Part shown: positions 56,788 through 63,472 of the stretch, in pieces
Layout: every line of letters begins with the position of its first letter
Numbering within the stretch: position 1 is the first letter of the stretch
Assembly: GCF_009935845.1 (NCBI RefSeq)
Contig: NZ_QWEK01000023.1
Span: 1 to 64,000 of the forward strand
Reading direction: 5' to 3'
DNA: 64,000 nucleotides
Source: Pseudoflavonifractor sp. 524-17
GTDB lineage: Bacteria > Bacillota > Clostridia > Oscillospirales > Oscillospiraceae
The notes under the pieces: model-generated
Told to the model about the DNA's origin: nothing
What the model saw: only the letters and a program-made list of their open reading frames with translations
Databases searched by the model: none
Made by a program: the position numbers and the translations under genes

Positions 56788-57500
56788 TGACCTATGTGAT
56801 GTCGGATATTCACGGCTATTATGAAAAATACCGGTCCATGCTGGAGACCATTGAGTTTGCGGAGGATGACACCCTCTATGTGCTGGGGGACGTACTGGAC
56901 CGGGGGCCGGACGGGTTCAAGATCCTGCTGGATATGGCGGCGCGGCCTAACATAATTGGGCTTCTGGGAAACCATGAGCTGCTGGCCGCCGCGGTGCTGC
57001 CCTCCCTTTTGCGCACCATACGCCGGGGCGAGGAGCAGCCTTTGGCTAAAGCGGAGCAGGCGCAGATGCAGGAATGGCTTCAAAACGGAGGGAAGGCATC
57101 CATCCTGCAATTTCTCCAGTTCAGTGGGGAAGAAATGGAGACCGTGTGCGAGTATCTGCGGTCACTGTCCGCCTATGAGGAAATCACGGTACAGGGACGG
57201 CGGTTTGTGCTGGTCCACGCCGGGCTGGAGCATTTCTCCGCCGCCCGTCCTTTGGAGGAATATGACCTGGAGGATTTCCTGTTCTGCCGCCCAGACCCGG
57301 AGACCGCCTATTTCCCGGACAAAACCCTCGTTTTCGGGCACACCCCCACCCGGCTGCTCTTCAAACAAATCGGGAAACCGGAACTGCCGGACCGCATTTT
57401 CCATCGTAATACAATGATTGGCGTCGACTGCGGGTGCGCCTATCCCGGCGGACGGCTGGGGTGCTTATGCCTGGATACAATGGAGGAGTTTTATGTGTAA
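56787..57500 (+). CDS. PPP-type metallophosphatase
   Basis: A 237-residue phosphatase of the ApaH/PrpE/PP1 group. The metal motifs are complete: SDIHGYYEKY (6-15), LGDVLDRGPDG (about 33-43), GLLGNHE (about 57-63), LVHAGL and FGHTPT. It may hydrolyse phosphoproteins or dinucleoside polyphosphates. Its start overlaps the stop of the upstream gene by 1 nt, and the PHP/PolC-like gene starts 8 nt before its end, which indicates one tightly packed transcript. Confidence 0.9.
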   Translation: MTYVMSDIHGYYEKYRSMLETIEFAEDDTLYVLGDVLDRGPDGFKILLDMAARPNIIGLLGNHELLAAAVLPSLLRTIRRGEEQPLAKAEQAQMQEWLQNGGKASILQFLQFSGEEMETVCEYLRSLSAYEEITVQGRRFVLVHAGLEHFSAARPLEEYDLEDFLFCRPDPETAYFPDKTLVFGHTPTRLLFKQIGKPELPDRIFHRNTMIGVDCGCAYPGGRLGCLCLDTMEEFYV

Positions 57501-58605
57501 GCAATTTATAAAAAGAGTTCATTCAATTTGCCGCACACATTTCAGGAGAAATTCCGCGCACAGGAAATCGGTGGAAAGGACTGAGTTGAGCTGCCACACA
57601 GATTTTACCCCGGGGGAGGGTATTCTTTCTCCGAAGGAGTGGATCAGCAGTGCCCGTGAAGCCGGCATCCGAGCCATTGCGATCACGGATTTTCAAAATG
57701 CAGACGGGTTTATGGAGGCGGCGCAGGCTATCGAGAAACTGCACCGGGACGCAGAACCGGGAGAGCTGGATTTCAAGGTACTCTATGGCCTGGAAACTGT
57801 GCTGGAGGACGGATGTCTGATTCATCTTCTGGTGCAGCATCAGGAGGGATTAGCGCAGCTTTACCGGCTGCTGGAAAGCCGGAAGGAGCGTCCGTTTCTG
57901 CGAAAAGCGGAGATCAACGAGCATCGAGCCGGACTGTTGGTAGGCTGTCCCGGAAAGGACGGAGAAGTTTATCGCGGGATTCTAAAAAATCTGGATGACG
58001 CCCGTTTGGAGGAAATCGCCGGGTTCTACGATTATCTGTCGGTCCTGCCGCCGCAGCATTGCAGACTTCTGTCCATGCCGGAGCACATTTCCCGCAGCGA
58101 AGCCCTTCGGGCGGCGGAGGACTTGATCCTCAAAACCATTGCTCTTGGCAAACGGTCAGGCAAGCCAGTGGCCGCAGCAGGAAACAGGCGAACAGCAAAT
58201 CAGGATTGGGGTATGTTCCGAAGCAGTATGGCTTATCGCGCCCTGAAGGATGAGAACTTGGTCCTTGACCCCGCTTTCCTTGGCAAATGGCTGGGCAAAC
58301 CGGCGGACACAGCGGGAAATACACCCATGGGAAATCAGGATTGGGGTATGTTCAGATGGGGTATGACTCATTATATTCTGAAGGGTGAGGATTTGGAGAT
58401 ACCCCTGCCGAACCGCCTCTACACGGAAGAGGATGGGGCCTGGGATGTATCCCTGCCAGATCTCCTCTACGCGGATGAGATGTTGGACGTCTTCTCTTTC
58501 ATGGGAAAAGAAGCAGCGGAGGAAATTGTCCTTCACGCGCCCAACCGTCTGGCGGATCTATGCGAAGAAATCCGGATTTTCCCGGAGGATCAACGATGCT
58601 TGTAG
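57493..58605 (+). pseudogene. PolC-like protein part 1: degenerate PHP domain, ends at in-frame TAG
   Basis: A 370-residue frame that aligns with the PHP part of DNA polymerase III PolC: AIAITDFQNADGFMEA, FKVLYGLETVLEDG, GLAQLYRLLESRK, GEVYRGILKNLDDARLEEIAGFYDYL. The DEDD exonuclease normally inserted after the 'YGLE' segment is absent. The PHP metal ligands are lost (ELSCHTDF where HLHT is expected). There is an internal tandem duplication of 45 residues (NQDWGMFR at about 236 and 281). ATG 57493 follows GGAGG. The frame ends in TAG and continues directly into part 2. Confidence 0.75.
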
Positions 58606-59844
58606 CCCATCCTGCCCGGTGCGTTTCAGACTGTGTCGGACCTCTGCCGGAAGCAGCTCCGGATACGGTACGGCAGTATGATTCCTGAGACGGCGCAGGA
58701 ACGGATAGAGTATGAGCTTGCAGTCCTGCAAAACAATGAATGGTTCTGCTCCGTTCTCCTGATTGTCCGCCAACTGGTACAGGGGCTCCAGGGAAAGGGG
58801 TATCCGGTCCGTGCATTAGCCAGGTACTACTCGGACTCCGGTTATACATATTCGTATGCCGCATATCTGCTTGGCGTGACTGAAGTCGATCCTTTGGCCA
58901 TACAGATCCCCCGTGAACGCTTCAGGATGCCTGACGCGCCTGATTGGCAATTTGCATTGAACGTTCCAGAAGAGTGTGTGGAGGAATGCTGGAAAGAGGC
59001 CGTTGCGATCCTTTCTCAAATATTTCCCCAGGGAATGGCGGTATCAATGCCGGAATCATATCAATCCAACGGAAGGATCTTTGTCCCCCATGCTGCGCAG
59101 CTGCGCAACTGGCTGCCCTTGAAAAAGGTTGACGGACAATATTGGGCCCCTTATGGAGCCGCTGAGGATTTTCCCTGCCTATTTCGGTTGTATTTAGTGC
59201 CCGCAAAGGACCTGAGTCTGTTTCGTAAACTGGAACAATCAACTGGAACACACCCATCCTCCATAAACATTGAAGAAGATGCGCTTCCGTTATTATTGCG
59301 GGATCAAACGGATATCCCAGAGCTTGGATTTTCAGATATCCAGGCGATCTGGAAACTGGCAGATCCCCAAACAATGGATGACATCATCAAGGTTTTTGCC
59401 CTGCGCCACTCCTGGGGCGCTTGGGAGGACAACGGTGAGGAGTTGGTGAAAAAGAGGGCCGTTCTATTCAGCGAGATCATTGGGAGCATGGATGATGTTT
59501 TCTTGCGTCTGCTGGACGCAGGATTGGATATGGCGTTTGTATACCAGGTTACAGCGCAGCTCCAGAGATCTGAAGAACTGGATAAAGAATATATTTCCGT
59601 CCTGACACAAAATGGGATTCCAGAATGGATTATCAATTCCTGCAGCAAAATCATAAAGCTCTCTCCAAAAGCGTATTGTGCGGCAGCTTTTGCGATACCG
59701 GCACTTAAAGCAGCATGGTATAAGGCGCGCTTTCCGAAGGAGTACGCGCAGGCGTATTCTGAATGGCATTCTGAGAATCTGCATTCACAGGCGTTGAACA
59801 CTGCCTTGGCGGAGATTTTTTCCAGCTCCCCCGAGGCCGGTTAG
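58606..59844 (+). pseudogene. PolC-like protein part 2: degenerate polymerase domain
   Basis: In the same frame after the TAG, homology to PolC goes on: YGSMIPETAQERIEYELAVLQNN, LLGVTEVDPLAIQIP, LSLFRKLEQSTGTHPSSINI, LRHSWGAWEDNGEELV, VLFSEIIGSMDDVFLRLL and NGIPEWIINSCSKIIKLSPKAYCAAAFAI. The catalytic aspartates are gone: PDAPDWQFALN stands where PDIDLNF is expected, and the GSRGS motif reads ALARYY. GTG 58633 could start it separately, but its ribosome site is poor. The protein cannot polymerise DNA. It is either a decaying PolC paralogue or a domesticated inactive one. Confidence 0.75.
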
Positions 59845-59882: not shown

Positions 59883-62800
59883 ATGAACGCTCAAGAAATC
59901 AAGAACATTCTGATCGCCTATCTGAAGACAGCCAACCGTGAGATCCGGATCTACCAGGAAAAAAGCATCGGGGACGCGGTGTGCGATCTGATGGCGGTGA
60001 CCAACTGCCTGACGGGCTACGAGATCAAAAGCGACCTGGATAATTACCAGCGGCTGAATCATCAAATCACTGCCTATGACCGTTTTTTGAGAAATGCTAT
60101 ATCGTCGTAGGCGGCCGTCACCTCAAATCAGCGGACCAGAAGGTACCTGGCCACTGGGGAATCATCACAATCCAGAGCGACCATGTCACCGTCAACCGCC
60201 CCGCCCGTGCCGGAAACCCGGACTGCGGCAGCCAGCTGAGGGTCCTCTGGAAGCTGGAGCTGTCCAACCTGCTGACAAAAGCAGGACTTCCGCCGTATAC
60301 TTACAAAAGCAAGCAGTACATCATAGACCGGATCGTGGAAAAACTGGCTCAGGCGGAAATCAGGCGGCATGTGGCCTATGAACTGATGCACAGGGACTAT
60401 GCGCTGTTCGACGCAAAAGACTACTCACTCCACTTCGGTGGAGCGGAGGAAACGGGGGATGGTTCCCCCGCAGTAAGCGGCCTGCCGGCGGCGGAGATTG
60501 TGGACGCCCTGTCTGAACAGGATTTCAAAGAGATGACCCTGGACCGGTGGATCGCGCTGTATGCCCAAGCCAAGGAGCTGCAAAAAAGCAAGGAGGACCT
60601 TAGCCGTGTGCGGACGGCTCCGAGGGCGCCCCACGACATCCCCTATACCGATATTGAGGTCTCATTGGGCGTACCTTGGGTCAGTGAACAGATCATCGAC
60701 GATTTCTGCTATGTTCTCCGCACGGGAGATGAGAAGTTGGTGGAGAGGATGCACTGGGCCCACAAGATAATCAGCTATGAGCCTCTGACCGGATACTGGT
60801 ATGTGGCAGACAAGCAGCGTACAGCATATTGGTATGGGGACAAAACGCGGCTTGAGCGCACCTATGGTCTGCCAAGCTACAACGCGCTGTATATTCTGGA
60901 GGCCACACTGAATCTCAGGGAGATCCGGCGGAAGACGAAAGCGGAAACGTTGGCGGCGCTGGAAAAGCAGGAGGCCATCGAAAATCTGTTCAAGGAGTGG
61001 GTCTGGCGGGACGAGGACCGCCGCTGGGAGATCGAGGAGGCATACAACAAGATCTTTCAGGGCTGCCGGGCCAAAGAATACAGCGGCCGTGAATTGAAAT
61101 TCCCGGAAATGAGCCCAGATGTCACGCTGCTTGATTACCAAAAGGATGCCGTCATGCGGGTGATCTCGGAGAAAAACACGCTCCTGGCCTTTGACGTAGG
61201 GGCGGGGAAAACCTATATCATGATCGCCGCCGCCATGAAAATGCGCCAGAAGGGGCGTTCCCGGAAAAACCTGTTTGTGGTGCCCAACCATATCGTGGGC
61301 CAGTGGGAGCTGATTTTCAAGCAGATGTATCCCGCAGCCAAGGTGCTGTCGGTGGACCCTGCCGCTTTTCGGCCTCAGCTCCGGCAGAAGGTGCTGGGGC
61401 AGATTCAGCGCGGGGATTATGACGGTATCATCATGGCGTACAGCTGCTTTGAGATGATCCCGCTGTCGGAGAAATACCTGATGGAGCAGATGGAGCGGAA
61501 GCTCCGGGAGCTGGACGCCTCTCTGCCGGGGAGGAATCCGGGGATTCATTTTCCAGGGATCGGCGCGTCGGTGAAACGGGAGAGGGACTACCTCAAAAAG
61601 CAGATTTTCGATCTGATTAGCACGCTGGAGGACTATACGGAAGCCATCACCTTTGACCAGCTGGAGATCAATACACTCTTTGTGGACGAGGCCCACAACT
61701 TCAAGAACATCCCTTTGCAGAGCAATCTGAGGGGAATTTCCGGCGTCAATATCACTGGTTCTCAAAAGTGCCTGGAAATGCTCCACAAGGTGCGGTGTGT
61801 CCAGGAGAACAATCAGGGCCGGGGCGTGGTTTTTGCCACCGGTACGCCGCTGTGCAATTCAATCTCGGACACCTACGCTATGCAGATGTACCTGCAATAT
61901 GACGAGATGAAGGAAGTGCACCTGGACCACTTTGACAACTGGGTGAAATCCTTTGCCAAGCCAGAGCGAGTATGTGAAATCGACGTGGACACCTCAAAAT
62001 ACCGTTTTGTCCTGCGGTTCGCGCGGTTTTTTAATCTGCCGGAGCTGTCCAGGATGTTTTCCCAGATAGCTGCCTTTCATGCGGTGGACAACAAGGAAGG
62101 GATTCCGCGGCTGGAGCGCTACAGCGATGTGATCCTGCCCCGCAATGCAGCGCTGCAAAGCTACATGGACCAGCTGTGCCTGCGCTCAGAAGAAATACGT
62201 GAATGGCGGGTGGACAAGACCAAGGATAATATGCTTAAAGTGAGTACCGACGGCAGAAAGGCGGCGCTGGATCTGCGGCTGGTGAATCAGGAGCAGCCCG
62301 GTGGGGAGATCTCCAAGGTCTGGCGCTGTGTTCAGCAGGTCATGGGGATTTACAAGGAGTACAACGGATGCAGCCAGATCATCTTTTGCGACTACTCCAC
62401 ACCCAAGGCAGAGAAGTTCAATATATATGACGAACTGAAACAGGAATTGATGAAGCATGGGGTCCCATCCAAAGAAATCGCCTTTATTCACAGCTGCCGC
62501 TCCGAGGCAGAAAAGGTGCAGCTTTTTGAAGAGGTAAACTGCGGTATGGTACGTGTTCTGCTGGGTTCCACCTTCAAGCTTGGCATCGGCGCCAACGTGC
62601 AGACCCAGCTCAAGGCTATCCATCACCTGGACGTACCCTGGCGGCCCTCCGACATGGTACAGCGGGAGGGCCGCATCCTCAGAAGAGGAAACCGATACCA
62701 GGAAATCAAGATTTTCCGCTATATCGCCGAGGGAAGCTTCGATTCCTACTCCTGGCAGCTGCTGGAGACCAAGCAGCGGTTTATCTCTCAGTTTTTGAGC

Positions 62801-63472
62801 GGCTCAGAATACCAGCGTTCCGCCTCCGACCTGGAGGAAAATGTATTGACCTATGCGCAGGTCAAGGCCCTGGCCATCTCCCAGCCGCTGATGAAGGTGC
62901 TGGCCGAGAAAGAAAATGAGCTGCGCCGCTTGCAGATGCTCTCCAATCACCACATCCACACCCAAGAAGCTCAGCGGCAAGCCATCGCTGAGCAGGAGGA
63001 GCAGCTAGCCATTCTCAAAGGAAGGCTCGCGGCTACTGAGCAGAATGCCAGCTATGTGGGCGGCATTTCTGAGGACGGCTTTCAGGCCGCTTACAGAACT
63101 GTGAAAGCGGTACTGACTGAGGACGTGGTTTTGGGCAGGACAGCTTCTCCCCTGGAGCTGTCGGTCTTAGGGTTCGGAATTGCAATCCCGGGAGCCGGGG
63201 AGCAGAACGCTAAAAAACCCTATATTGTTCTGTCCCGCAATGGGGCCGACTATCCGCTGGAAATGGGGCCATCCTCTGCCGGGAACGCGCGCCGTGTGGT
63301 GAACTTTTTGAAACGGTTTCACGAACTCCCCAAGCGCATCGAAGAACAGCGGGACGAATGCCTGAGGGAAATCGAGCGTCTAAAAGAATTGAGCCGGGAA
63401 ACAAACCCCTATTTGGATGACATGAGGTCTTTGGAGGAAGAAATCACACGAATACGCTCTAAAATCATCTGA
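59883..63472 (+). pseudogene. sce7726-type nuclease domain fused to SNF2-type helicase, broken by a 1-nt slip
   Basis: ATG 59883 opens a PD-(D/E)XK sce7726-type domain (SIGDAVCDLMAV, TGYEIKSDLDNYQRL). At the T6 run 60083-60088 the frame shifts: restoring one T gives YDRFFEKCYIVVGGRHL and an unbroken frame to 63472, about 1196 codons in all. The helicase part has Walker A in AFDVGAGKTYI (nt 61188-61220), VDEAHNFKN (near 61680), FATGTPLCNS, and motif VI VQREGRILRRGN (near 62660), then a coiled-coil tail. The second frame also offers an ATG at 60335 for a helicase of 1045 residues alone. It is the last gene of the island operon. Slippage, decay or sequencing error could explain the shift. Confidence 0.8.

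What the first reader, a model, noticed from the sequence alone, without database searches (positions are those of the whole stretch)
57493..59844. A catalytically dead, exonuclease-less PolC homologue split by one TAG
Two adjacent same-frame segments together align with PolC from the PHP domain to the C-terminal polymerase region, but the DEDD exonuclease is missing, the PHP ligands are changed, GSRGS is lost, and the palm aspartate motif PDIDLNF reads PDAPDWQFALN. The TAG stands roughly where a Tyr codon lies in PolC. The rest of the fold is too well kept for random decay. A non-catalytic PolC-like protein in an island could act as a replisome decoy or phage-replication sensor.
Basis: partly seen in the sequence, partly recalled or inferred. 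Interest (0 to 1): 0.8.

Follow-up and report, generated by a model that had tools for sequence, protein, structure and literature searches.

The report
Inactive DNA polymerase relative, now broken
A probable mobile island in a clostridial bacterium carries a shrunken relative of the main replication enzyme PolC that has lost its catalytic residues yet evolved like a working gene in three genera, although in this strain a stop codon now cuts it in two.

Summary
Window 57493-59844 is one gene, 370 codons + TAG + 412 codons, homologous to PolC from PHP through palm to fingers. It lacks the exonuclease, the zinc-finger insert, GSRGS, TTGQHPGG, the C-terminal tail with the clamp motif, two of three palm aspartates and seven of nine PHP ligands. 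Two homologues in other genera of the family share these losses as far as they reach: L004 (88% identical, uninterrupted) and L005 (68% over aligned residues, open across the TAG site, truncated later). dN/dS is 0.24-0.34 in three of four pre-/post-TAG comparisons and 0.57 in the fourth, so the protein was non-catalytic before the copies diverged and was still constrained. The TAG is private to this copy: relatives have a sense codon there, not Tyr, and the gene's own terminator is also TAG. All three islands carry damage. Exonuclease loss alone is a known variant of clostridial PolC (PMC3919608). The family is rare and unlikely to be a recent copy of host PolC. I read it as a pseudo-polymerase with a binding role, now decaying. 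"Replisome decoy" is untested and weakened, because the N-terminal domains and clamp motif are gone.

The parts
57493..58602 (+). N half of the PolC-like pseudo-polymerase: PHP-A joined directly to PHP-B (no exonuclease) and the start of the palm region; 370 aa
   Evidence: GGAGGAG just upstream of the ATG
58603..58605 (+). In-frame TAG, private to this copy; relatives L004 and L005 are open across it
58606..59844 (+). C half: rest of palm (without zinc finger, GSRGS, two of three Asp, TTGQHPGG) and fingers; ends before the HhH/clamp region; 412 aa plus TAG terminator; no evident ribosome-binding site for a separate start (by eye)
58144..58396 (+). Imperfect internal direct duplication (58144-58261 / 58279-58396, about 72% alike), shared with L004, absent from L005
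56787..57500 (+). Calcineurin-like metallophosphatase, overlaps the start of the PolC-like gene by 8 bases; mostly deleted in L004
56338..56787 (+). 149-aa protein without a Pfam match, kept in L004
55219..56280 (-). WYL/WCX protein (transcriptional regulator, role recalled); 95% identical in L004, 58% in L015
53999..55336 (-). PD-(D/E)XK nuclease-superfamily protein (PDDEXK_4; PADLOC candidate PDC-S26); 91% identical in L004, only 29% over part in L015
53586..53981 (-). DUF4368 fragment, probably the end of a recombinase (role recalled), left edge of the island
59883..60381 (+). Start of the next gene, split by a frameshift in the window; the frame runs on for 375 codons in L004; PADLOC model cll 1.4e-13 on the L004 protein, function unclear
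60335..63472 (+). SNF2/DarB-like helicase, 1045 aa

Best explanation
The gene encodes a pseudo-polymerase. It is a PolC descendant carried by a probable mobile island of Oscillospiraceae that lost its exonuclease, zinc finger, catalytic palm and PHP metal sites and C-terminal tail, but kept the PHP/palm/fingers scaffold. Shown: homology, shared losses, constraint on the protein in the copies, a private stop in this one. Inferred: it works by binding rather than catalysis, most likely as a partner or scaffold of the island's own DNA-handling proteins (the helicase gene directly downstream, with the WYL protein and PD-(D/E)XK protein upstream), in the way that the dead polymerase ImuB serves in a complex. 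In the window strain the protein is probably no longer made whole: a 370-aa PHP fragment is expected, and the second half has no evident start of its own.
For: Homology. Motif losses against 46 PolCs: of 235 near-invariant columns L004 keeps 88, changes 101 and lacks 46; the catalytic motifs are among the changed ones. Constraint: dN/dS pre-TAG 0.295 (bootstrap 0.18-0.47) and post-TAG 0.339 (0.22-0.53) with L004, 0.243 (0.17-0.33) pre-TAG with L005, against 0.80 and 0.97 in two wrong-frame controls whose limits span 1. Frame 0 of the L004 gene has 0 stops; the other five have 14-32. Own clade with 100% SH-aLRT, stem about 8 changes per column against a path under 0.9 between members. A recent host copy is unlikely: the host PolC ranks 47th of 50 by summed BLAST score over the whole protein, and 23rd of 49, 42nd of 50 and 36th of 50 by region. 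Each of the three genomes has another PolC match, partial in G394. Synteny with WYL and PD-(D/E)XK genes in L004 and, more remotely, in L015, and with the downstream gene in L004 (only a 21-codon start remains in L015). Island G+C 0.537 against 0.600 in window 1-50000. The AlphaFold model of L004 matches PolC best (Foldseek 3f2b 3.9e-30; VIA 3f2b Z 30.9, rmsd 14.7 over 423, and 3f2c Z 30.8, rmsd 3.8 over 406).
Against: Only three copies are known, all in damaged islands: the window has the TAG and a split downstream gene, L004 a stop in the helicase, a mostly deleted phosphatase and a changed 3' end, L005 a truncated PolC-like gene. The post-TAG half is less constrained against L005 (0.57, 0.38-0.82). 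The model has mean pLDDT 57 and its alignment held four true PolCs, so its fold match is not independent. No partner, expression or binding evidence exists. The first palm Asp is kept, and L005 has Glu at the second position, so a trace of the metal site remains.
Confidence: 0.5

Rival explanations
1. Plain pseudogene: an element-borne polymerase that lost activity and is simply decaying in every copy, without any function after the loss.
For: All three islands carry damage: one TAG here, truncation in L005, a frame change at the 3' end of L004. The post-TAG part is less constrained against L005.
Against: The losses are shared by copies about 0.5-0.7 synonymous changes per site apart (window against L005), and pairwise dN/dS over the whole aligned gene is 0.31-0.37 with in-frame length changes up to the truncations. 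Wrong-frame controls give 0.80 and 0.97.
Confidence: 0.3
2. Decoy or dominant-negative for the host or phage replisome: the inactive protein sequesters replication factors or a phage inhibitor of PolC.
For: PHP, palm and fingers scaffold kept. Neighbours match models of candidate defence or anti-restriction proteins (PDC-S26, WYL, DarB-like helicase).
Against: N-terminal domains, OB domain, HhH/C-terminal part and clamp motif are absent. No PADLOC model matches the protein itself (0 hits at E 0.01).
Confidence: 0.15
3. The TAG is read through or recoded, so the window strain still makes the full protein.
For: Homology and constraint between copies continue after the TAG; the second half has no evident start site (by eye).
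Against: The gene's own terminator is also TAG. Relatives have a sense codon there. The downstream gene is broken too. Branch counts on the window lineage are too small to show post-TAG constraint: pre 20 synonymous and 12 nonsynonymous, post 6 and 8.
Confidence: 0.05

Closest known systems
PolC-type DNA polymerase III (C family; G. kaustophilus 3f2b, S. aureus 9qpc)
   Same: PHP, palm and fingers by sequence and predicted fold
   Different: No exonuclease, zinc finger, N-terminal/OB domains or C-terminal part; two of three catalytic Asp and seven of nine PHP ligands lost; far below the NCBIfam PolC cut-off (112 and 127 of 873 bits)
Exonuclease-less PolC of Clostridia (PMC3919608; G790 L020 and others here)
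   Same: PHP domain uninterrupted by an exonuclease
   Different: The nine examined keep GSRGS, PDIDLN, TGQHPGG and LDxLG and are 1200-1323-aa frames
Minimal plasmid PolC of Cetobacterium (WP_330112558, L007)
   Same: No exonuclease motif found by pattern; ends soon after the fingers (by eye)
   Different: Keeps PDLDIN and LIKLDIL; only about 20% identical to L004
ImuB, the catalytically inactive Y-family homologue
   Same: Works-like precedent: a dead polymerase homologue that acts in a complex (PMC12926913, PMC3919608, passages read)
   Different: Different polymerase family and different partners

Membership tests
PolC-type C-family DNA polymerase | PHP and Pol3 domains by curated Pfam cut-offs | tested here: met
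   PHP 51.7 bits over 26.4, DNA_pol3_alpha 45.6 over 23.9; the finger domain is below its cut-off, 18.9 of 22
PolC-type C-family DNA polymerase | Three palm aspartates (said to be absolutely conserved in the family, PMC3919608, passage read) | tested here: not met
   First kept, second Q/K/E, third Y in L004
PolC-type C-family DNA polymerase | GSRGS and TTGQHPGG motifs (recalled; near-invariant in the 46 PolCs) | tested here: not met
PolC-type C-family DNA polymerase | NCBIfam PolC equivalog score | tested here: not met
   112 (N half) and 127 (C half) against 873 bits
PolC-type C-family DNA polymerase | C-terminal HhH region and clamp-binding QLSLF | tested here: not met
   Protein ends before them
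Exonuclease-less clostridial PolC | No exonuclease insert in PHP | tested here: met
Exonuclease-less clostridial PolC | Catalytic residues intact | tested here: not met
PHP phosphoesterase/exonuclease | Nine ligands HHDHEH[C/H]DH (motif as given in PMC12926913) | tested here: not met
   Window and L004 keep 2 of 9, L005 keeps 1 of 9, by alignment
Known anti-phage defence system (PADLOC) | Protein matches a model of the library | tested here: not met
   0 families for the intact L004 protein at E 0.01; neighbours hit PDC-S26, WYL, cll and helicase models
ImuB-type accessory pseudo-polymerase | Y-family polymerase homology | tested here: not met
   C-family homology only
ImuB-type accessory pseudo-polymerase | ImuA and DnaE2 partners | not tested
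   No search was made

The most novel reading that the evidence does not exclude
A lineage of catalytically dead C-family polymerase (pseudo-PolC) was captured by a mobile conflict island of Oscillospiraceae, stripped to PHP-palm-fingers and repurposed as a binding subunit working with the island's helicase and nuclease. It would be the first dead member of a family whose catalytic aspartates have been called absolutely conserved.
Probability: 0.4. Interest if true: 0.7.

Novelty: new variant of a known kind. Interest (0 to 1): 0.5.

Why it matters
The 2013 family survey states that the three catalytic aspartates are absolutely conserved in the C family, but it removed sequences without an intact active site beforehand (PMC3919608, passages read). 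The 2026 survey discarded strongly diverged or truncated sequences before its trees and names no dead C-family group in the section and passages read (PMC12926913). A selected, non-catalytic PolC relative would show that the bacterial replicase, like some Y- and X-family enzymes described there, can lose its polymerase site and be kept. It would also give a natural probe for what the PHP-palm-fingers scaffold binds.

Tried and rejected
Recent copy of the host polC: judged unlikely (host rank 47 of 50 over the whole protein, 23-42 by region; own clade with a long stem). Exonuclease loss as the key feature: rejected (PMC3919608). Phage or plasmid relatives: the records opened (L006, L008, L009, L043, L045, L046, L047) hold PolCs with GSRGS, PDIDLN and, where tested, LDxLG; L047 had no TTGQHPGG match; L007 is the minimal form. 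Other listed and unlisted records (26 phage records; 17 plasmid records) were not opened. The island has no near DNA match in the plasmid collection. IMG/VR scans with the window C half, L004 and L005 found none. Tree placement of the clade among PolCs is unresolved (stem about 8, long branches). Net charge does not separate the protein from PolC on the same columns. In some searches I had first labelled L045 as exo-less, wrongly; one search corrects it to nine exo-less rows and five changes on the tree.

Members found: 2 of 200 family genomes including the window's own (E 1e-25), 3 of 400 including the own (E 1e-60), 1 of 394 order genomes (own only), 2 of 391 class genomes of which one is an intact exo-less PolC, 1 of 149 phylum genomes (own) and 1 of 10 genus genomes (own), the last four at 1e-45; these sets overlap. 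In some searches the listed genomes had only two first-look candidates scored, so a copy could be missed; nearly all were scored. A more remote member would fall below the thresholds, so absence elsewhere is not shown. In the VIA second look most rows below the C-family polymerases cover the PHP part only.

Full report
Observation. The segment 57493-59844 is one reading frame of 370 codons, a TAG at 58603-58605, and 412 codons. The N half carries a PHP domain and the C half the palm start and fingers of PolC by Pfam, NCBIfam and solved structures; the finger domain lies below its Pfam cut-off (18.9 of 22 bits). The gene begins with GGAGGAG close upstream and overlaps the metallophosphatase gene before it; the C half shows no evident start site of its own; the terminator at 59842-59844 is also TAG.

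Anatomy against PolC. Alignment with five PolCs and a larger set shows what is missing: N-terminal and OB domains, the exonuclease between the two PHP parts, the zinc-finger insert before the palm aspartates, GSRGSVGSS, TTGQHPGG, the VRKG fingers motif and everything after the fingers including the clamp motif. Of the three palm Asp the first is kept; the second is Q (window), K (L004) or E (L005); the third is Y in L004 and by the same alignment in the window. L005 has a gap there and reads L by eye. Of nine PHP ligands the window and L004 keep two and L005 one. Over 46 PolCs, 235 columns are at least 95% one residue; L004 keeps 88, changes 101 and lacks 46.

Relatives. A scan of GTDB genome contigs found one relative, L004, an Oscillospiraceae metagenome-assembled genome, 88% identical and uninterrupted across the TAG site. 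It is the same contig, reversed, as G394:C157, and G394 is labelled same family as the window's genome, so the window is taken to be Oscillospiraceae. A genome of a third genus, G068, has L005, 68% identical over aligned residues (60% and 56% by tblastn), open across the TAG site but truncated after 521 codons. Counts, thresholds and their limits are given under Tried and rejected. Each of the three genomes also has another PolC match, partial in G394.

Constraint. dN/dS (own Nei-Gojobori script) is 0.31 for window against L004 over 757 codons, 0.35 for window and 0.37 for L004 against L005. By part with bootstrap limits: pre-TAG 0.295 (0.18-0.47) and post-TAG 0.339 (0.22-0.53) with L004; 0.243 (0.17-0.33) and 0.57 (0.38-0.82) with L005. 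Two wrong-frame controls gave 0.80 (0.45-1.35) and 0.97 (0.60-1.65). Neighbouring genes gave 0.14-0.50 between window and L004. Branch counts with L005 as outgroup are too small to date the TAG: window lineage pre-TAG 20 synonymous and 12 nonsynonymous, post-TAG 6 and 8; L004 17 and 20, 10 and 7. The losses, being shared, predate this constrained period; that is the main argument against plain decay.

Origin. In a quick tree of 53 rows the three sequences form one clade (SH-aLRT 100) on a stem of about 8 changes per column, against a path under 0.9 between members; the place among PolCs is unresolved. The host PolC is 47th of 50 by summed BLAST score (23rd of 49, 42nd and 36th of 50 by region), so a recent host duplication is unlikely. 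Exo-less PolC is not rare: at least nine of 60 class genomes show the split match pattern (G751, G756, G761, G764, G773, G790, G794, G798, G806; the match list was cut). Eight of these were fetched; they and the phage-record PolC L043 lack the exonuclease in the alignment while keeping GSRGS, PDIDLN, TGQHPGG and LDxLG, and on the quick tree presence of the exonuclease needs five changes among 49 PolC rows. PMC3919608 (section 14 read whole) reports 6% of PolCs without Exo, with one exception from Clostridia and Negativicutes.

Structure. AlphaFold of the intact relative L004, with the window halves and four IMG/VR PolCs as alignment, gave mean pLDDT 57.4, pTM 0.43, best in PHP and the palm start. 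Foldseek's best solved match is PolC 3f2b, 3.9e-30; VIA Z 30.9, rmsd 14.7 over 423 residues for 3f2b and Z 30.8, rmsd 3.8 over 406 for 3f2c. As PolC rows were in the alignment, this supports but does not independently prove the fold.

Neighbourhood. G+C is 0.537 in the island and 0.600 in window 1-50000. Left: a DUF4368 fragment (recombinase, recalled), a PD-(D/E)XK protein (PDC-S26 model) and a WYL protein on the minus strand; then a 149-aa gene, metallophosphatase, PolC-like, and a gene whose helicase part is DarB-like. In L004 the PD-(D/E)XK, WYL and downstream genes are syntenic (91, 95 and 73-88% identical); in L015 the WYL protein is 58% identical, the PD-(D/E)XK protein only 29% over part, and a 21-codon start is left of the downstream gene. 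The nearest helicase relative among 200 family genomes, G052, sits with another WYL gene but no PolC-like match. To the right, outside the window, lies a vanG-type cluster: VanR (373 of 350 bits for the VanR-ABDEGLN model), a VanS-like kinase (348 of 400, below cut-off), VanG ligase (553 of 495), VanT (510 of 460), then a tyrosine integrase. All three islands show damage: the window downstream gene is split by a frameshift, L004 has a stop in the helicase, a mostly deleted phosphatase and a changed 3' end of the PolC-like gene, and L005 is truncated. The window copy is therefore most simply a recently inactivated member; a sequencing error cannot be excluded.

Mechanism and verdict. With both catalytic centres damaged and constraint visible, binding is the likely function. 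The gene order favours a partnership with the island's own helicase (inference). The replisome-decoy idea is possible but lacks the N-terminal and clamp-binding parts. Literature searches for an inactive or dead PolC/C-family homologue listed titles and abstract beginnings only, none describing one, on ImuB, returned nothing. Two surveys were read in passages and one named section each, and PMC11963600 in passages.

Noticed in passing
L014:784-5936 (right of the window, contig C49): vanG-type cluster: VanR and VanS-like two-component system, VanG ligase, a hexapeptide acetyltransferase and VanT racemase beside the island; a tyrosine integrase follows at L014:8005-8886.
   Followed up: partly
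L020, L043, L088-L094: Nine PolCs without exonuclease but with the catalytic motifs; five changes of exonuclease presence on a quick tree of 49 PolC rows.
   Followed up: partly
L007:3477-6221 (Cetobacterium somerae plasmid): Minimal 914-aa C-family polymerase without an exonuclease motif or long C-terminal part that keeps PDLDIN and LIKLDIL.
   Followed up: partly
L042:963-13922 (G052): WYL gene, DarB-like helicase, and genes that by eye look like a MoxR-type ATPase, a metallopeptidase/VWA-like protein and a LigA-like ligase in one array, a possible relative of this island type.
   Followed up: no
window:58144-58396: Imperfect in-frame duplication inside the PolC-like gene, shared with L004 but absent from L005.
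   Followed up: no
L015:9503-10608: Two tandem paralogous genes of 171 and 168 aa (70% identical) between WYL and the PolC-like gene in G068; the first was scanned and has no Pfam match.
   Followed up: no
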